Source: Legionella drozanskii LLAP-1 (GTDB lineage Bacteria; Pseudomonadota; Gammaproteobacteria; Legionellales; Legionellaceae). Taken from it: DNA of 64,000 nt. Made by a program: the position numbers and the translations under genes. Shown here piece by piece: positions 42,706 to 55,233 of this stretch (positions within the stretch are counted from its first letter, which is position 1; every line of letters starts with the position of its first letter). The stretch covers positions 665,342 to 729,341 of the forward strand of contig NZ_LNXY01000027.1 in NCBI RefSeq assembly GCF_001467585.1. The letters run 5' to 3'. The notes under the pieces were generated by a model. That model saw only the letters and a list, made by a program, of their open reading frames with translations, searched no databases and was not told where the DNA came from.

Positions 42706-44178
42706 TCAAAATGGATTAAATAAATTCTCGTGAGTGGGGGTAGGTTCTCCATACATTGCATTAATTACTGTTCGTGTGGTCGTTGTCTCATTGCCTACTT
42801 TTCCTGAGTACTCACGCACCTGGTCAATGTTTGTACACTCACCTAAAGTCAAATTTCGATACATGGTGCTTGCTGGGTTTCTAAAAAGTCCACAAGTAAC
42901 ACCATAACGCCAAGTAAACTGTGCAAATTCACGCTCCCATGGCTTATAATCCAATTCTTCTCCATTTAAATTAATTTCTTCTCTTTGCTCACTAGCCTGG
43001 TCTTCGGCCGATATTTCTTCATTTGAACGATTCGTTGCGATCGACTCTAGGGGTTGAAATTCATTGTGTATAAAAGCAGGAGGTATATTTGATTCAGGAC
43101 CATCGTATACTAAGGCTTCGACTCGAAACGCTTCGTCGCAATTTAGTCCCAATAAATGCCATATCCATTGCAAGGAGGAATAGCGCCAAAAAAGGTGCAG
43201 CCAGGTGTTCGCATAAATAATATCGTGTAAAGGATTGTTTTTATCATGGCAAGCCCGAACAAATAAGACAGCAGAATTTCCTGATTGTTTCTTGTATTCT
43301 TTCACCTGATCGATTAATGCAAAACGATTTTTTATTAATAAGCTTCTGAAGCCTTCATCTCGAGGCGCTTTAGCGCCATGACAAAGCAACATGGCAATGC
43401 CATATAAAGCCTCTTGTGGTTTTTCCTGATTTTTTAAGCGCTTACAAAGCAAATCAATGGCCCTATCAGATTCACTATTTTCAGCTTGCAGATCTAAACA
43501 ATTTTTGCCCGCAGTTGCAAATAACAAAACTTCTAATGATTTTATTGTGCCTAACCGAGCGGCGAGTAACAGCGGCGTTTCTCTTAATCGACCGCAGGGG
43601 TTATCGACGATGGCACCATTCTCAAGCAAATAATAAGTTGCCTCGGGAAAATTAGTTGCCACTGCTTGATGCAAGGGTTGTATTGTTAGGGTTTGACCCT
43701 GGACTAGTATTTGATTTGGCGCATTCACATCAATTTTAAATCCGCGCCGAAGAAGAGTACTTAAAATTGAGGCATTTCCGGTACTTATAGCCCGAGATAA
43801 TAGGGTCCGACCAGTAATAAGCTCAGGGAAATCTAATTCGACTTTTCGCCGAGCTTCGCTTTCCTCATCCGAGTCCTGAAAAAAAAGTGGAAACAAATCT
43901 AATTTCTTCAATCTCAATAACAAATGGATTGAGCAATCTAAGTTAAAATCTGCCCCCATAGAAAGAAGCATTTTTATATGGTTTTTCCTACAGGGCTTTC
44001 CCAATCCTACCTCATGAATATGAATGAGATAATTGAGTACTGTAATTTGCTCAGTCTCTTTAAAAAGAAATCTTCGCTCAAAAAAATTTTTATCAGCTGA
44101 TGCTTCCTTATGGATAAACGCTTCAAAAACCTTTTCCCCTAACTCGATAGCCCGCTCTAACTCTGCAAAAGATTTCAT
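42706..44178 (-). CDS. Ankyrin-repeat protein, probable Dot/Icm effector
   Basis: A 490-residue soluble protein with several ankyrin-type repeats, clearest in TGRTLLSRAISTGNASILS (about 136-154), PLHQAVATNFPEATYYLLENGA (split across a turn) and ETPLLLAARLGTIKSLEVLL. The C-terminal half (about 270-490) contains no recognised domain, is rich in Trp and acidic residues, and ends PTHENLFNPF. Legionella species encode many ankyrin effectors. One near hflK in L. pneumophila (AnkC/LegA12, from memory) may be the ortholog, but I did not verify it. Monocistronic between hflK and trmB. Confidence 0.75.
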   Translation of the reverse strand: MKSFAELERAIELGEKVFEAFIHKEASADKNFFERRFLFKETEQITVLNYLIHIHEVGLGKPCRKNHIKMLLSMGADFNLDCSIHLLLRLKKLDLFPLFFQDSDEESEARRKVELDFPELITGRTLLSRAISTGNASILSTLLRRGFKIDVNAPNQILVQGQTLTIQPLHQAVATNFPEATYYLLENGAIVDNPCGRLRETPLLLAARLGTIKSLEVLLFATAGKNCLDLQAENSESDRAIDLLCKRLKNQEKPQEALYGIAMLLCHGAKAPRDEGFRSLLIKNRFALIDQVKEYKKQSGNSAVLFVRACHDKNNPLHDIIYANTWLHLFWRYSSLQWIWHLLGLNCDEAFRVEALVYDGPESNIPPAFIHNEFQPLESIATNRSNEEISAEDQASEQREEINLNGEELDYKPWEREFAQFTWRYGVTCGLFRNPASTMYRNLTLGECTNIDQVREYSGKVGNETTTTRTVINAMYGEPTPTHENLFNPF

Positions 44179-47608: not shown

Positions 47609-47906
47609 GGTTGGGCCTTGGCCCTGAGGTATCGTCACTTTTTTTGAATAATATTTCGAGCCAAATCCAGTATTTTACTGAACCATGCAGCCTGAGGAGG
47701 AGCGTCAGCGACGTCTCGAAGGCCTGTCCTGAGGTACTCGAAAGGGCCTGTCCTGAGGCAGCACCAAGGCTTCGAGACAGCGCTACGCGCACCCGAGCAT
47801 CCTGAGGCTCTCGAAGGACTCAGCCCGAACGGAGTGAGCTACTGATTGGAGCAACAGCTATTTTTGTTCAAACAAAAGTGACGATACCACAGGCCAAGGC
47901 CCAACC
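47609..47906. mobile_element. MITE-like element with about 40-bp terminal inverted repeats and a GC-rich repeat core
   Basis: The left end (47609-47650) reads GGTTGGGCCTTGGCC, then a GGTATCGTCACTTTT block. The right end (47864-47906) is its inverted copy with a few mismatches and one indel. Between them is a GC-rich block (about 47690-47835) unlike its AT-rich surroundings, with two copies of GGCCTGTCCTGAGG 24 bp apart and several CTCGAAGG/CTTCGAG palindromes of a type I recall from repeats in many bacteria. It encodes no transposase. No clear target-site duplication. The whole 298 bp could fold as one long hairpin. Confidence 0.7.
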
Positions 47907-48009: not shown

Positions 48010-48474
48010 ATGCATATTAGTCAACTAATCAATGTAAACACCGTTTATATTGACAGTATTTCACAAAGCAAAATGGCTGTACTTCTAAAGCTCAGCCAAT
48101 TAGTCAGTCAAAATCATCCCCATCTTAATCCGCAAGAATTATTTGATGCTTATTGGAAACGAGAATGTTTAGGAAGTACTGCGATAGGTCAAGGAGTTGC
48201 AATCCCACATATTCGCACAGCCGCATTAATCAAACCGCAAGGCTGCGTGATCCGATTATTAAATCCGGTTGATTTTGGGGCAGAAGATAAACAGCCCATC
48301 GATTTAATTATTGGTCTATTGGTTCCGCAGGAACAAGTTGATCAGCATCTAAAAATACTCGCTGCAATCATTAAGCAATTCAGCATTTCTTCTTTTCGTG
48401 AGGCTTGTCGGCGGATAAATGAACAGGAAGAATTTTATAATTTATTAATTTCAGCAGAAGAGTTGCCTGCTTAA
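48010..48474 (+). CDS. ptsN: PTS IIA-like nitrogen-regulatory protein
   Basis: Phosphoryl acceptor of the nitrogen PTS, regulating K+ and nitrogen or stress responses. The 154 residues match EIIA-Ntr, with the phosphorylated His67 in GVAIPHIR and the DLIIGLLVP strand. It normally follows hpf closely; here the two are 427 bp apart because of the inserted repeat element. No rapZ or hprK is seen nearby. Confidence 0.93.
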   Translation: MHISQLINVNTVYIDSISQSKMAVLLKLSQLVSQNHPHLNPQELFDAYWKRECLGSTAIGQGVAIPHIRTAALIKPQGCVIRLLNPVDFGAEDKQPIDLIIGLLVPQEQVDQHLKILAAIIKQFSISSFREACRRINEQEEFYNLLISAEELPA

Positions 48475-48532: not shown

Positions 48533-51500
48533 CTAACAGGTAGCTGTTGAAACTGGGGTAGGTTCCTGAGTACGTTGGTCACTAGTTATACTGCGTTTAC
48601 TAGCTGCTCCCCAATGTCCATCTCTTGATAGCTTCGCACTTGATTCACTATTCCTCCATTGACCCACTTCTACAGGAACCTTTTCTCCCTCATGCTTGTC
48701 TTGGTGATCCTCATCCTTTTTCACAGTGACAGCTGTTTTCTTTGAGTTTGAAGCCGTTGATTCTTCTACAACGACGACCTTAATCTGTTTTTCCTTCCTA
48801 AAATCACGCTTGGCATGAGGCCCATGCTCATAATCATCCTTATCATTTGCCGAGCTACTCAGTCCTTTATCTAATTGAAGTTCCAGTTTAGGCTTAACAA
48901 AACTCACCATCCGGTTACGACTTGGATCCCCTTCACGAATCATTGGGACATCAGGACCCTCTACCTCATAACCCAAGCCGTACTCTTCCAGCAATGCCTT
49001 CCAGTGAGACATAGGGCGGAAATTCCTTCTCTCTGTCATTTCTTCTTTCAAAGAAGCGCCTGTGACTGCATTAAACACAGTGTGAGCCATATGAGCCATG
49101 CTCATTGAAGTTTCACCATACTCTACATCGTGATCAACCAGTAAGAAATGACCTCCTTCACGCAATACTCGCCTTACTTCAGTTAAAAAGGCTTCTAGTT
49201 CATCGTCAGGGAAATGATGCAGACCCACATAGCAAGTAATCACGTCTGCACTGTCTTCTGGTAAATCAGCAAGTGCGAGATGGGGTTTATTGTAATCTAA
49301 CTTTCTATAGTCATCGTTAGGTCTGGGGTATCCAGTCTGAATATAGTCAGTCAAAGAAGGATCATTTTCATGAATCGCCACAATAGGCCCTGTGACTTGG
49401 TAATTCGCTTTAAATCCCCCAACAAAACGAGCAGGATAACCAATTTCTACTAACCCATTAATTTCAGTCATCTCTGAAGGCAATATGGCCTTAGCCTGGC
49501 GAGCCAGATCAGTTTTAATGGCCGAGAGTGAACTTAGGATATGGCGGAAATCACCTATTGCAGAAGGCATGATTTCTGGTAAACGATTGCATAATTCTTG
49601 GTAAATCTCAGCATGAGTATCGTTATAGGTCATAATGTCTTCGAGCAAGGCGAAAAATTTATCCGCATCGACACGCTGGAGGACATTTTTCAAGAAACCA
49701 GCAAATTCTTCTTTGTTCTCTTCAGACTCCATAATCACTTTAAAATGATTAACTTCTGTCTGAGGAGCGAGGTATTTTTGATAAAGTCCACTCGAGAAAA
49801 CCCCTTCAGGATCAACTTCTTGCTTAAGCGCTTGCACTTTGGCTTGAGCATCTGGATAAGCGCGGTCAAAATCATCTGGAGAAGAGACTTGTTGATAAGG
49901 CAAATAATAGCTTCCACCTCGCTCTACTGCCATATGCTGGGCTTCTCGTAACCATTTTTTCGCCTTTATAATTTCACTGGGCTCAAGCGATTGGTTAAAA
50001 CATAAAACCACTGCAAAGCGATCTCCTGCTCTTGCATAAGATAAGGGTGATTGGTGTGTTTCTTGATTATGTTTAACAAAACGTACAGAAGCATTAAGCA
50101 AAGGCACGCCGTTTGTCATCAACAATTGCCCTAATTCTGCTAAAAAGCCGTCGAGTTCATCCCCTGGTAAGAAGTACTCCTGCAACCACTCCGCCTCAGA
50201 CACTGAAGGATTAAACATCGCATTAATGGGGGGTTGCATAATCTCATTGGTGGTCGTTGCCGGCGCATTATTGGCTAAAACGCGATCACGCTCGCTTTCC
50301 CAATAGTATTTGCGTACATAAGGAATTCGTCGGGCAAGATTAATCATCACCTGATTAAAGCGCGTGCCACGGTTGCCTTCCTGTTGCAGATTAGGAGTAA
50401 CACAAATCTCGTCCTCTTCTTCTTTAATCCGCTCCTTTCGTTTGGAGCGAGGACGTAGTTCCTCTTCTTTTTCAACGCTATCGTCTTTTTGTTTTCCTTT
50501 TTCTAAACGAGCTTTGTGAGCTTCATCTTCAACTGGGCCATAGGGACTTGGGTCTTTCACATAATCAACTGCGACACCAGCGCCTAGTAAATTCTTTGGA
50601 TCTAAGGACAAGCGATATAAGTGCATGTGCACGTTATCATTGTGCTGAACTTTCTGCTGAAAATGCTCAACATATTGAGCAGGCGCTACCTCTACTCCAC
50701 GCTCATAAAGTTTCTCATTTTTAATCAACTTCAACTTCACTTGGGTAATAACACCATAAAGGCCGAATCCACTGGTAAGGTGATGGAATAACTCGTCCTC
50801 CGGCGTTAAGGTATGTTGCTTGCCCTGGGCATCCACAAAATCTATTTCCAAAATAGAATCAGCCAGTGTTCCAGTTATATTCCAACCATGAATATCCGTT
50901 CCTATAGAGCCGCCTACTGAAAACACATTAGAAGCCTGCATGAATTGTAATGCTAAACCTAACTTGTTAGCCTCATTTTGCAAATCAGCCCAACGTACGG
51001 CCGCACTAACCGTTGCTACGCCTTCTTCTGCATCGATAGAAATAGGACCACCTCTTAGCTGCAACTGACTCAGATCAACCACTACAGCACCTTTACCTCC
51101 CTCCGGCAGAAACTGTTTACCTTGACTGAGACCCGCTCCTATAGGCATTACTTTTTTGCCAGCTTCAGCTGCTTCAGTAATGATGCTTTGCAACTCCCTA
51201 ACCGTTGTTGGTCGCTCAAATTCTGCTTCCTCATCATGATGGTAGCCACCACCCGCAGTGACACCCTTCTGCGACGTTTTTTCTGGAGTAAAATAAAAAG
51301 CCACCAGCTTTGGACTAATTAAACCAATTAACGAGGCAAAAATGGCATAGAGGTTTTTACTAAAAATAGTGGTGTACTTTTTTTGCTGAGCGAGACGTTG
51401 ATCTTGTAAATTATCAGCAACAAAAAATGTACTAAAGGAAAAACGAATGCCTAAAGCGCCGGAGACCAGTATATCAACCAGCGTCAATGGCAGGAATAAA

Positions 51501-51655
51501 GTCAAAAATATTGCTCTCACTTTAAAAAACTGCCAGGCTTTACTGAAAAAACCTTTTGAATTCGCCAAATAGGCTCTATCAATCATTCCTGCGGGCCATG
51601 AGTTTAAACGGCCGAGCTCGGGTAATGAATTAAACATTTCTTTCAATTTCGACAT
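48533..51655 (-). CDS. FAD-dependent oxidase / SAM-methyltransferase fusion, membrane-anchored
   Basis: 1040 residues. Residues 1-125 hold two hydrophobic segments (about 48-72 and 102-122). Residues about 147-312 form a PCMH-type FAD-binding domain (PIGAGLSQGK, FSVGGSIGTDIHG). A variable part and a C-terminal oxidase lobe ending DPEGVFSSGLYQKYL (about residue 640) follow, as in sugar-lactone or sterol oxidoreductases. Residues about 740-920 resemble a class I methyltransferase (DVITCYVGLHHFPDDE, EVRRVLREGGHFLLVD), although its glycine loop (EIGYPARFVGG) is atypical. The last 120 residues are low-complexity and charged. Reaction unknown. It is the second gene of a two-gene unit, 12 bp after 51668-52870. 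Confidence 0.72.
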   Translation of the reverse strand: MSKLKEMFNSLPELGRLNSWPAGMIDRAYLANSKGFFSKAWQFFKVRAIFLTLFLPLTLVDILVSGALGIRFSFSTFFVADNLQDQRLAQQKKYTTIFSKNLYAIFASLIGLISPKLVAFYFTPEKTSQKGVTAGGGYHHDEEAEFERPTTVRELQSIITEAAEAGKKVMPIGAGLSQGKQFLPEGGKGAVVVDLSQLQLRGGPISIDAEEGVATVSAAVRWADLQNEANKLGLALQFMQASNVFSVGGSIGTDIHGWNITGTLADSILEIDFVDAQGKQHTLTPEDELFHHLTSGFGLYGVITQVKLKLIKNEKLYERGVEVAPAQYVEHFQQKVQHNDNVHMHLYRLSLDPKNLLGAGVAVDYVKDPSPYGPVEDEAHKARLEKGKQKDDSVEKEEELRPRSKRKERIKEEEDEICVTPNLQQEGNRGTRFNQVMINLARRIPYVRKYYWESERDRVLANNAPATTTNEIMQPPINAMFNPSVSEAEWLQEYFLPGDELDGFLAELGQLLMTNGVPLLNASVRFVKHNQETHQSPLSYARAGDRFAVVLCFNQSLEPSEIIKAKKWLREAQHMAVERGGSYYLPYQQVSSPDDFDRAYPDAQAKVQALKQEVDPEGVFSSGLYQKYLAPQTEVNHFKVIMESEENKEEFAGFLKNVLQRVDADKFFALLEDIMTYNDTHAEIYQELCNRLPEIMPSAIGDFRHILSSLSAIKTDLARQAKAILPSEMTEINGLVEIGYPARFVGGFKANYQVTGPIVAIHENDPSLTDYIQTGYPRPNDDYRKLDYNKPHLALADLPEDSADVITCYVGLHHFPDDELEAFLTEVRRVLREGGHFLLVDHDVEYGETSMSMAHMAHTVFNAVTGASLKEEMTERRNFRPMSHWKALLEEYGLGYEVEGPDVPMIREGDPSRNRMVSFVKPKLELQLDKGLSSSANDKDDYEHGPHAKRDFRKEKQIKVVVVEESTASNSKKTAVTVKKDEDHQDKHEGEKVPVEVGQWRNSESSAKLSRDGHWGAASKRSITSDQRTQEPTPVSTATC

Positions 51656-51667
51656 GAATCTACTCCC

Positions 51668-52870
51668 TTAAAAATTATGAATGAATCTGACTTCAGCACC
51701 TTGCTCGTCAAATTCGTCTAAAGTTTCTTCTAATTTCATAACAGGAACATCGAATAAACACACTTGGCGTGTTTTGTCATGAATCCTGTCACCATAGGTG
51801 TACAATGGTGTAGCGTCTGTAGCCCTAGCCCTAGTGTTGAGGGTTTCAATTTTATGTTCTAATTGCTCTTCAACCCCTGCATCCTCATCTGCAGACCCGG
51901 TGACCACGCATTTCACCTGTACCCGATCCTGTCCTGCAATTTTTTTCACATGAATCTCTTGATCGGCTAAAGCACGGATAACGGGTTGAAAAAGAGCATA
52001 ACGCGGTGTTCTTAAACGAGCATAAACATAAGTGGATGAACTTTCTTGTTCTTGAGAGTTATCCATTTTCTTCCTGGCATATACCTCGTTATCGACAATT
52101 GAAACTTCTAGATCCTGGCCAATCTCATCGTCACTAAGATGGTCTTTTAACTGTCCATTAGCTTGTGCTAATAAATCCCTAAATTGTGCTTTAGCATCTT
52201 TCTTCCTATTTACACCCTCTGCACGATACTTGACGATGATATCGGTTACGGGTTCAACAATATTGGTGTCTTGATGAAACCAATAACTTAAAGGTTTAGA
52301 AATCCAGCGTCTTGCCCAAAGCTCGATCGATAACGATTTCCAAGTGAACCAATCAACCCAAGTTTTGTTTTCGCAAGAGTTATAAGCTTCTGCTAAGGCC
52401 GCACGATTTTCTTTGTAATGATGATCATAAAACGGAATCGTTTGTAAATCTTGAGCATAGCTCTCAAAATAAGCAGCAACTTTTTGTTGCATCTCCGAGT
52501 TATTATCTTTTTTCAAAAAAGGATAAAGTATAAGAGAAATCAATCCCTTAGGAATCATTTCCAGAGTAGTAAAAAGCGTAATGAAGATATCCATTACCAT
52601 GTATTCGGAAGTTAATATGTTCCAAGCACTATCGTATTCTCTTGCTACTGAATAAGAGTTATAAAATACCCGCCATAAGTCAGCAACTTGACGAAAATAA
52701 GGAAATTGAAATATAGAATTATTTTCTCGTAAAAACGCAGCAAGCTCTTCGGCCATTTCAACGTTACGCCATTCGGGACCAGTCATAAAACTCTGATATT
52801 GATAGCGCGGATAGCTTGCTTTTGCTATTGTTTTTAGCTTTTCGTCCAATCGTTTTACATACCTTCCCAT
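51668..52870 (-). CDS. Unrecognised partner of the FAD/methyltransferase fusion
   Basis: A 400-residue protein with a basic N-terminus (MGRYVKRLDEKLKT), one hydrophobic stretch near residues 92-120 (FITLFTTLEMIPKGLISLILYPF), an aromatic-rich helical middle with many Trp, and a C-terminal mixed alpha/beta half (from about 245). No family recognised. Only 12 bp separates it from the downstream fusion gene, so they are surely co-transcribed and probably work together at a membrane. A PmrA-like tandem site lies 40 bp upstream and AGGAGAAG precedes the ATG. Confidence 0.65.
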   Translation of the reverse strand: MGRYVKRLDEKLKTIAKASYPRYQYQSFMTGPEWRNVEMAEELAAFLRENNSIFQFPYFRQVADLWRVFYNSYSVAREYDSAWNILTSEYMVMDIFITLFTTLEMIPKGLISLILYPFLKKDNNSEMQQKVAAYFESYAQDLQTIPFYDHHYKENRAALAEAYNSCENKTWVDWFTWKSLSIELWARRWISKPLSYWFHQDTNIVEPVTDIIVKYRAEGVNRKKDAKAQFRDLLAQANGQLKDHLSDDEIGQDLEVSIVDNEVYARKKMDNSQEQESSSTYVYARLRTPRYALFQPVIRALADQEIHVKKIAGQDRVQVKCVVTGSADEDAGVEEQLEHKIETLNTRARATDATPLYTYGDRIHDKTRQVCLFDVPVMKLEETLDEFDEQGAEVRFIHNF

Positions 52871-52930: not shown

Positions 52931-53160
52931 TGAGAGAATAAATATTAAAAAAATGCATTCAAGTGCGCAAAATGTTATCACATTAATTAATTAATAACCA
53001 ACACTATTTTTTTAGTCATCACTCTTTTAAAACTCTTCCTCGCTAAGAAGCAATTTGATAATTCTTTACTATAAAAAAACACCTGCTTTTTTGTGCTAAT
53101 AATGAACAACTAGGGCTTTAACCATTGTAGAAAATTACAGCACATGCTAAATTGCTCGCC

Positions 53161-53430
53161 ATGATAGAAACTAAAATTAAAATTATCAATAAATTGGGTT
53201 TGCACGCTCGAGCTTCTGCGAAATTCGTATCGACCACTGCACGATTTTCCAGTCATATTGAGATCACCAAGGATTCTCAAACTGTAAATGGCAAAAGTAT
53301 CATGGGTGTCATGATGCTTGCTGCCAATAAAGGCAGCGAATTGACTTTGTCTATAGAAGGACCCGATGAGGTCGAAATGGAAAAGGCTGTTGTTGCATTG
53401 ATCAATGACTGCTTTGGCGAACCTGAATAA
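53161..53430 (+). CDS. HPr-family phosphocarrier (NPr-like)
   Basis: 89 residues starting MIETKIKIINKLGLHARAS, with the phosphoacceptor His15 in GLHARAS and a regulatory-Ser-like region GKSIMGVMML. It passes phosphate from enzyme I or EI-Ntr to EIIA. With ptsN 4.7 kb away and no sugar permease gene in view, a nitrogen-PTS role (NPr, ptsO) is likelier than sugar uptake. An in-frame TTG at 53152 is possible but the ATG fits the family. Confidence 0.9.
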   Translation: MIETKIKIINKLGLHARASAKFVSTTARFSSHIEITKDSQTVNGKSIMGVMMLAANKGSELTLSIEGPDEVEMEKAVVALINDCFGEPE

Positions 53431-54690: not shown

Positions 54691-55233
54691 TTAGAATCCT
54701 TGACTGTTTTTTAAAGTCATCGTCAATGATTCCAAATGCCCCATGACCGTATTTAAAAAAGCAGCCGTCCCCTGGAAATTCACCGCTAAAATGCCAGCAA
54801 AAAGAAAAGCCAGTCCTTTAGGCCCGTGCTGCACGCCAGGACTACTTGCGCCTACCAATAAAACACAGCCGCGAATGAACCAAATAACTCCAGCAGTTTG
54901 AATGATTAACCCCATAGAACTGTAGATATTGTAAGGATTGTAATCCGTATAGGAGAGGACATTACCTACGCCAAAGGTCGAGTTCGCGAGAAGACTAACA
55001 GCCGATGGCAGAAAGACCAATGCAGCACCTCCTAATAAAAAAGCGAGAGGTCCAAACATTTTTTCCTGAGACTGTTTTCCTGCTGACTCCCCTATTTTCT
55101 TAAATTTTGCTATCGCTACCAAAAAAAAAGCAATACCAATAAGGTAGGCAAAACCTGAAATAAGATGTTGAACAGGAAACAATGATCGGCTCAAATTGCC
55201 GAGCATTGCAACAATATCAGTGGTACTATTCAT
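54691..55233 (-). CDS. dotV: IcmC/DotE/DotV-family Dot/Icm type IVB secretion membrane protein
   Basis: A 180-residue inner-membrane protein with four hydrophobic segments (about 22-42, 62-84, 105-128, 135-157), short loops and a polar tail. The spacing and segments such as FGPLAFLLGGAALVFLPS and GLIIQTAGVIWFIRGCVLLVG match the IcmC/DotE and DotV proteins of the Legionella secretion complex. As a solitary gene outside the icm regions it is most likely DotV, which in L. pneumophila also lies near pssA and proA (from memory). The symbol is therefore by context. Confidence 0.75.
   Translation of the reverse strand: MNSTTDIVAMLGNLSRSLFPVQHLISGFAYLIGIAFFLVAIAKFKKIGESAGKQSQEKMFGPLAFLLGGAALVFLPSAVSLLANSTFGVGNVLSYTDYNPYNIYSSMGLIIQTAGVIWFIRGCVLLVGASSPGVQHGPKGLAFLFAGILAVNFQGTAAFLNTVMGHLESLTMTLKNSQGF

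What the first reader, a model, noticed from the sequence alone, without database searches (positions are those of the whole stretch)
48533..52870. FAD-oxidase/methyltransferase fusion plus unknown partner, a possible new membrane-associated modification pathway
One 1040-residue protein joins a two-segment membrane anchor, a PCMH/FAD oxidase and a methyltransferase-like domain; a second 400-residue protein of unknown family is co-transcribed 12 bp upstream. Both contain hydrophobic segments. A lipophilic substrate (sterol, isoprenoid or lactone) that is oxidised then methylated is an attractive guess. The pair sits between ptsN and an HPr gene, which suggests insertion into a conserved module.
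Basis: partly seen in the sequence, partly recalled or inferred. Interest (0 to 1): 0.75.

Follow-up and report, generated by a model that had tools for sequence, protein, structure and literature searches.

The report
Unnamed oxidase–methyltransferase–partner membrane module
A membrane-anchored enzyme that joins an oxidase to a methyltransferase travels with an undescribed partner protein in some Legionella and in scattered bacteria of other phyla, and neighbouring genes elsewhere hint, without proving it, that it chemically modifies membrane lipids.

Summary
In a Legionella genome (nearest named relative in the scan: L. nautarum) a 400-residue protein and a 1040-residue fusion lie 12 bp apart on the minus strand between ptsN and an HPr gene. 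The fusion has two membrane segments, a FAD oxidase related to DprE1 and lactone oxidases, and a Methyltransf_11 domain with an unusual but conserved SAM loop (EIGxxGR). The partner matches no Pfam or NCBIfam family.

The pair is neither unique nor core. It sits at this site in 3 of 20 genus genomes examined and elsewhere in 5 more (fusion broken in one); a distant, divergent pair is in another. One genome scan gave 79 loci in eight or more labelled phyla: partner beside the oxidase/methyltransferase in 57, a GNAT domain instead in 16, 6 cut by contig ends. All three parts share one open frame in two loci. In unnamed Pseudomonadota outside the class, partner and an oxidase of the same subfamily occur without the methyltransferase, so oxidase plus partner is the wider core.

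Neighbours in some non-Legionella loci (MFS-PlsC-AMP-binding proteins, alpha/beta hydrolases, DUF805) favour a membrane-lipid substrate; substrate and reaction are inferred. A sound, unnamed module; its chemistry is open.

The parts
51668..52870 (-). Partner protein, 400 aa, undescribed family; first gene of the pair
   Evidence: no Pfam/NCBIfam match above cut-off; family alignment A4 of 53 rows, a Pfam hit at E <= 0.01 in only 1 of 53
48533..51655 (-). Fusion protein, 1040 aa: membrane hairpin, FAD oxidase, methyltransferase, variable tail
51440..51526 (-). Membrane segment 1 (residues 44-72)
   Evidence: Kyte-Doolittle window of 19
51296..51352 (-). Membrane segment 2 (residues 102-120)
50807..51214 (-). 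FAD_binding_4 domain (residues 148-283); nearest curated model DprE1, below its cut-off
49766..50368 (-). Oxidase C-terminal half (about residues 430-630), lactone-oxidase-like, with conserved QEYF and YLPYQ motifs
48899..49723 (-). Helical stretch and class I methyltransferase domain (about residues 645-919)
49427..49447 (-). Non-canonical SAM loop EIGYPAR (residues 737-743); family consensus EIGxxGR
   Evidence: E737 and G739 in 58 of 58 rows, R743 in 57 of 58, G742 in 57 of 58, the window being the exception
48533..48898 (-). Low-complexity tail of about 121 residues; long tails are found in the Legionella-type copies
   Evidence: shorter ends elsewhere
48010..48474 (+). ptsN (PTS EIIA-2), left neighbour of the insertion
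53152..53430 (+). HPr gene, right neighbour of the insertion

Best explanation
The two genes are the Legionella form of an unnamed, patchily distributed bacterial module: a FAD oxidase related to DprE1 and lactone oxidases that works with a dedicated partner protein, often with a class I methyltransferase and a membrane component (Legionella hairpin, or DUF805 elsewhere). Proposed working: the hairpin holds the fusion at the cytoplasmic face of the inner membrane; the flavin domain dehydrogenates a membrane-borne substrate and passes electrons to oxygen or another acceptor; the methyltransferase methylates the same substrate before or after; the partner binds or presents the substrate or completes the oxidase. 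Most likely substrate: a phospholipid, its acyl chain or another membrane lipid. Shown: domain anatomy, conserved pairing, single-frame fusions of the parts, oxidase plus partner without methyltransferase elsewhere, recurrent lipid-type neighbours in some lineages. Inferred: a physical complex, the cytoplasmic side, the substrate, the order of steps, the electron acceptor.
For: Pairing: 57 of 79 scanned loci have the partner (20 upstream on the same strand, 36 downstream on the same strand, 1 on the opposite strand, none over 700 bp away), the 16 loci with a GNAT domain lack it, and the other 6 are cut by contig ends. One open frame holds oxidase, methyltransferase and partner in L094 (3070 aa) and L123 (1140 aa), methyltransferase and partner in L116 (685 aa). 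In an order of 53 genomes, partner and methyltransferase occur in the same 2 genomes, which are also L119 and L138 of the 79. Elsewhere in the phylum, 13 of 14 partner regions fetched hold an oxidase that matches the FAD profile over most of its length, E 6e-58 to 7.5e-81. Membrane link: Legionella hairpin in 21 of 79 loci, DUF805-like in 33 of 79, in one frame with the oxidase in 12. Lipid link: MFS proteins with PlsC and/or AMP-binding domains (LplT/Aas-like; these names are recalled) near L083, L090, L091, L101, L103, L128 and L142, MFS alone at L102, a fragment at L108; alpha/beta hydrolases in Comamonadaceae, Lysobacteraceae, Spirochaetota and other Pseudomonadota loci; a patatin beside L085.
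Against: None of these lipid-type neighbours lies beside the window's own pair. 6 of the 9 LplT-type loci are one family, Comamonadaceae (labels), so independent cases are few, and no chance rate was computed. The partner starts with a hydrophobic segment in 24 of 34 non-Legionella rows but in 0 of 19 Legionella-type rows, so its compartment may differ. The nearest solved relatives of the oxidase act on sugars and sugar lactones. 18 of 20 partner-bearing genomes of the phylum sample gave no methyltransferase match, and L194 shows the partner with neither oxidase nor methyltransferase in 14 kb.
Confidence: 0.42

Rival explanations
1. The oxidase acts on a sugar or sugar lactone, perhaps lipid-linked as in DprE1, and the methyltransferase decorates the product; the membrane anchor reflects a polyprenyl-linked substrate rather than a phospholipid.
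For: Best solved relatives of the 58-row profile are DprE1 chains (E 8.7e-33), then galactonolactone dehydrogenase and xylitol oxidase; the DprE1 and FAD-linked oxidoreductase models are matched by 58 of 58 members at E <= 1e-10.
Against: The DprE1 cut-off is not met by the window (84 of 500 bits); where DprE1 has YTAKD the family has YLPYQ, with Y584, L585, Y587 and Q588 in 58 of 58 rows; the two recurrent neighbour families outside the module are an acyltransferase/MFS protein and a hydrolase. I did not search the loci for sugar genes as such.
Confidence: 0.25
2. Oxidation is the whole function: the methyltransferase-like domain no longer methylates and only binds or regulates, as its altered SAM loop and its absence in other Pseudomonadota suggest.
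For: Motif I is EIGxxGR instead of the usual GxGxG (recalled); in the window the Pfam and NCBIfam models match only after that loop; 18 of 20 partner-bearing genomes in the phylum sample gave no methyltransferase match.
Against: In the relatives L104, L114 and L127 Pfam methyltransferase models align from their first positions, loop included; loop residues, TC-[YF]-x-G-[LF]-HH and the later DHD and HTxFN stretches are near-invariant in 58 rows, which suggests an active site under selection.
Confidence: 0.18
3. The Legionella copies have become membrane effectors: their disordered tail is a Dot/Icm signal and the enzyme works on host membranes.
For: The 26 Legionella-type copies examined have 25-125 residues after the methyltransferase, against 2-9 in 23 other rows; membrane effectors with a cytoplasm-facing C-terminal signal are described in PMC11602083 (passages read).
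Against: Only 3 of 25 tails have three or more E in five residues within the last 30, and the window's does not; some other copies also have tails, about 26 residues in L132 and 17 in L137; the partner has no such tail; related modules occur in bacteria of other phyla.
Confidence: 0.08

Closest known systems
DprE1, decaprenylphosphoryl-beta-D-ribose oxidase
   Same: FAD_binding_4 fold; flavin loop, HG motif and the C-terminal YP...K...DP stretch align
   Different: Far below the curated cut-off; YLPYQ replaces YTAKD; fused to a methyltransferase and tied to an unknown partner
Sugar 1,4-lactone oxidases / L-galactonolactone dehydrogenase (TIGR01678, TIGR01679, TIGR01676)
   Same: Same flavin-domain superfamily; the first two models are matched by 57 and 58 of 58 members at E <= 1e-10, the third by 28
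   Different: The window is below the curated cut-offs; the ALO C-terminal domain is below cut-off in the window
BfaA/BfaB, 10-methyl stearic acid synthesis (PMC5660069; passages and section 16 read)
   Same: A FAD oxidoreductase and a SAM methyltransferase encoded side by side and both needed for one lipid modification
   Different: Separate proteins; BfaB is of the cyclopropane-synthase type (recalled), a family absent from the Pfam hits of our fusion at E up to 1; the passages read mention no unknown partner
Furan fatty acid pathway UfaM/UfaD/UfaO (PMC7380195; passages read)
   Same: Methylation plus oxidation of phospholipid acyl chains by neighbouring genes
   Different: UfaD resembles phytoene dehydrogenases and UfaO has DUF1365; neither is among the Pfam hits of our pair

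Membership tests
FAD_binding_4 (PF01565) flavoproteins | Score above Pfam gathering cut-off | tested here: met
   77.9 bits against 26.4
DprE1 (NF053785) | Score above curated equivalog cut-off | tested here: not met
   Window 83.7 bits against 500
ALO, D-arabinono-1,4-lactone oxidase C-terminal domain (PF04030) | Score above cut-off | tested here: not met
   Window 13.5 bits against 23.1; met in the relatives L094, L116 and L127, not in L099 and L104
Class I SAM methyltransferases (Methyltransf_11, PF08241) | Score above cut-off | tested here: met
   33.7 bits against 21.2
Class I SAM methyltransferases | Canonical GxGxG motif I (recalled as the usual loop) | tested here: not met
   Family consensus EIGxxGR; Pfam models still align across it in L104, L114 and L127
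BfaAB/TmsAB 10-methyl fatty acid system | Methyltransferase of the cyclopropane-synthase family (recalled) | tested here: not met
   No such family among the Pfam hits at E up to 1
BfaAB/TmsAB 10-methyl fatty acid system | 10-methyl fatty acid product | not testable with these tools
   Needs lipid analysis
Furan fatty acid pathway | DUF1365 protein UfaO | tested here: not met
   No DUF1365 match in fusion or partner; the rest of the genome was not searched
Dot/Icm translocated substrate | C-terminal acidic (E-block) signal | tested here: inconclusive
   3 of 25 Legionella-type tails by a simple rule of mine, window not among them
Partner in any described family | Match above cut-off in Pfam or NCBIfam, or a solved relative | tested here: not met
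   Pfam: 1 of 53 members with a hit at E <= 0.01, Rgp1 at 0.0017; NCBIfam: none for the window's partner, other members not scanned; best PDB match of the profile E 0.09

The most novel reading that the evidence does not exclude
A new, broadly distributed membrane-modification system built on an undescribed protein family: oxidase and partner form the conserved core, the methyltransferase with an unusual SAM-loop form is an add-on, a GNAT domain can take the partner's place, and the product is a lipid not yet described.
Probability: 0.3. Interest if true: 0.8.

Novelty: new variant of a known kind. Interest (0 to 1): 0.52.

Why it matters
It gives a recurrent but unnamed gene module a definition that can be searched for: a new protein family (partner), the flavin oxidase subfamily that goes with it, and a methyltransferase with an unusual conserved SAM loop. 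If the lipid reading is right, a so far unseen modified membrane lipid exists in scattered bacteria of several phyla, and a first test is a simple lipid profile in harmless hosts.

Tried and rejected
Viral origin: one scan of viral contigs with A1 gave 26 pattern matches and no relative. Plasmid origin: 18 plasmid records matched, all below 60% identity and none over 80% of the query; the Legionella lytica plasmid hit covers 47% of the query, in the oxidase part, at 24.5%. A core role of the pair in the ptsN region: rejected, because the pair sits elsewhere in five other genus genomes and the ptsN-HPr gap holds other frames or a short spacer in 15 of 20. The idea that the partner never occurs without the methyltransferase: rejected. 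The idea that it always has the oxidase beside it: 13 of 14 fetched regions do, L194 does not. EgtB/EgtD-like neighbours of three relatives (Pfam-tested in L029 only) are divergently transcribed and were not seen at the other genus sites read, so I do not use them. Literature: the listings showed no paper on this fusion or partner; the module has no name to search by, so absence from print is not shown. The exclusion between partner and GNAT is striking (57 and 16 loci, none with both) but rests on few evolutionary events: 14 of the 16 have GNAT and oxidase in one frame, and the GNAT rows of the tree fall in one group that also holds one partner-bearing lineage, L119; L129, outside that group, has a separate GNAT gene just behind the methyltransferase, where the partner would be.

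Full report
WHAT IS THERE. The window lies in a 3.56-Mb genome of 34 contigs. The nearest named relative of the fusion in the scan is L. nautarum (L066, 78%). Pfam finds FAD_binding_4 and Methyltransf_11 above cut-off in the fusion and nothing above cut-off in the partner. NCBIfam's best model for the fusion is DprE1, far below its cut-off. Two membrane segments lie at residues 44-72 and 102-120 of the fusion; the window's partner has none by the same measure.

SITE AND SPREAD IN THE GENUS. Of 22 genus genomes held (G000 included), 9 have a partner match: 8 clear ones and a weak one in G003. The fusion is beside it in G000, G014, G001, G016, G021, G012 and G008, and in a short divergent form in G003; in G019 the fusion is broken while the partner is open. 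I examined the ptsN-HPr interval in 20 genomes (the window, two relatives with the pair, 17 others; G003 and G010 were not fetched): the pair in 3, a spacer of 65 to about 300 bp in 6 (L149 prints 313 because its HPr hit is in two pieces), other open frames in 9, no ptsN hit in 2. So the interval is variable and the pair is a lineage-specific insert there. In G016, G019 and G021 the pair lies instead beside EgtB/EgtD-like genes (Pfam-tested in L029 only) and, by eye, rRNA-like sequence.

SPREAD BEYOND. One scan of genome contigs with A3 found 97 relatives and kept the best 80, 79 distinct loci; its two patterns both lie in the methyltransferase part, so oxidase-partner pairs without it could not be found that way. 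Of the 79: 79 match the methyltransferase profile and 77 the FAD profile (profiles built partly from the same loci), 57 the partner, 16 a GNAT N-terminus, 33 a DUF805-like profile, 21 the Legionella hairpin. No locus has both GNAT and partner. The 22 without partner are 16 GNAT loci and 6 cut at contig ends (L068, L085, L087, L093, L122, L133). The partner lies upstream on the same strand in 20 loci, all Legionella-type, downstream in 36, and on the opposite strand in L102. Pfam confirms GNAT in L088 and L127, and DUF805 in L099, L104, L114, L125, L143, L142 and L182; the others rest on my profiles. Labels place the loci in Pseudomonadota, Bacteroidota, Spirochaetota, Chlamydiota, Verrucomicrobiota, Planctomycetota, Elusimicrobiota and Vulcanimicrobiota; many are metagenome bins, whose labels I could not check. 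L094 joins oxidase, methyltransferase and partner in one 3070-residue frame, L123 in 1140 residues, L116 methyltransferase and partner. In L123 the linker looks by eye like a kept signal peptide.

OXIDASE PLUS PARTNER IS THE WIDER CORE. In the order of G141 partner and methyltransferase occur in the same 2 of 53 genomes; these two are also loci L119 and L138. In a class sample the methyltransferase query of G003 matched 3 of 369 genomes at E <= 1e-15. In a phylum sample of 398 genomes the partner matched in 20 (E <= 1e-6), the methyltransferase in only G000 and G688 (E <= 1e-20); three partner matches, G688, G639 and G492, are partial. I fetched 14 of the 18 regions: 13 hold an oxidase that matches our FAD profile, E 6e-58 to 7.5e-81, several with twin-arginine-like starts by eye; L194 holds none in 14 kb, even at E up to 1. 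Two small membrane proteins beside them are DUF4383 by a narrow margin. So the partner mostly goes with the oxidase, and the methyltransferase is optional. A quick tree of 102 FAD domains puts the Legionella-type rows and the Chlamydiota row together (support 99), but it has long branches and an arbitrary root.

MOTIFS. A5 holds the window and 57 of the 79 loci; split, broken, cut and masked copies were left out. Over its 58 rows H256, G257, E493, Y584, L585, Y587, Q588, E737, G739, T807, G811, H813, H814, H842, H858, F861 and N862 are in all; R743 and G742 are in 57 each, the window having A742. EIGxxGR replaces the usual GxGxG (recalled). In the window the curated models align only after this loop, but in L104, L114 and L127 Pfam models align across it. 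The best solved relatives of the methyltransferase are YcgJ-like (E 1.7e-7).

NEIGHBOURS. Clustering the neighbours of the 79 loci gave two families found in 9 loci each outside the module: an MFS protein with PlsC and/or AMP-binding domains (LplT/Aas-like, names recalled; 6 of the 9 are Comamonadaceae) and an alpha/beta hydrolase. Single-sequence searches over 96 loci then gave 15 hydrolase relatives besides the query (L112 weak; L193 some genes away) and one further weak MFS/acyl-type match at L115. Pfam confirms the domains in the examples tested. A patatin gene lies just behind L085. They point to lipids but name no substrate, no chance rate was computed, and none lies beside the window's own pair.

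TOPOLOGY PUZZLE. The partner starts with a hydrophobic signal or anchor in 24 of 34 non-Legionella rows of A4 and in 0 of 19 Legionella-type rows; 8 of those 19 have one weak internal segment. Some N-termini were trimmed by me, so 24 is a lower bound. A SAM methyltransferase must sit in the cytoplasm (established knowledge), so in one clade partner and oxidase may face different sides, or the segment is an anchor of another topology. Unsolved.

VERDICT. Observation confirmed, interpretation partly supported. The module is real and unnamed in the libraries searched; its chemistry is inferred from neighbours and folds.

Noticed in passing
window 47609-47906: A repeat of about 290 bases with inverted ends between hpf and ptsN (15-base perfect terminal pair); at least 14 further copies at 79-90% identity in the same genome, three in a row on contig C20 (its list was cut). 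Looks like a miniature mobile element.
   Followed up: partly
ptsN-HPr interval in 20 genus genomes (L145-L161, L025, L026, window): The interval is an insertion-prone site: open frames of about 180-205 residues with an NIA(A/S)(L/I)RWL start in six genomes, a 141-residue secreted-looking protein in two, other frames or short spacers elsewhere.
   Followed up: partly
L198, L199, L200, L201, L202: Stand-alone, exported-looking oxidases that match the same flavin profile, without methyltransferase or partner match; in L200 an alpha/beta-hydrolase-like gene overlaps the oxidase's stop.
   Followed up: partly
79 loci; L129 3088-3678: Partner and GNAT exclude each other (57 and 16 loci, none with both). 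In L129 a separate GNAT gene sits just behind the methyltransferase, where the partner would be, suggesting replacement.
   Followed up: partly
window 48533-48898 and Legionella-type relatives: Poorly conserved tails of 25-125 residues rich in serine and acidic residues by eye, many with a short LF-type motif by eye.
   Followed up: partly
L190 and L197: Catalase-peroxidase-like and OxyR-like genes near the oxidase-partner pair in two genomes of one genus, by eye from the sequences; they would fit hydrogen peroxide release.
   Followed up: no
window 42706-44178 and 54691-55233: An ankyrin-repeat protein (Pfam) and a small membrane protein that resembles an Icm/Dot component (by eye, recalled; no Pfam match above cut-off) flank the region.
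   Followed up: no
L083 9210-9961: Behind a complete Legionella-type fusion lie two further frames with oxidase and methyltransferase matches, which look like a decayed second copy.
   Followed up: no
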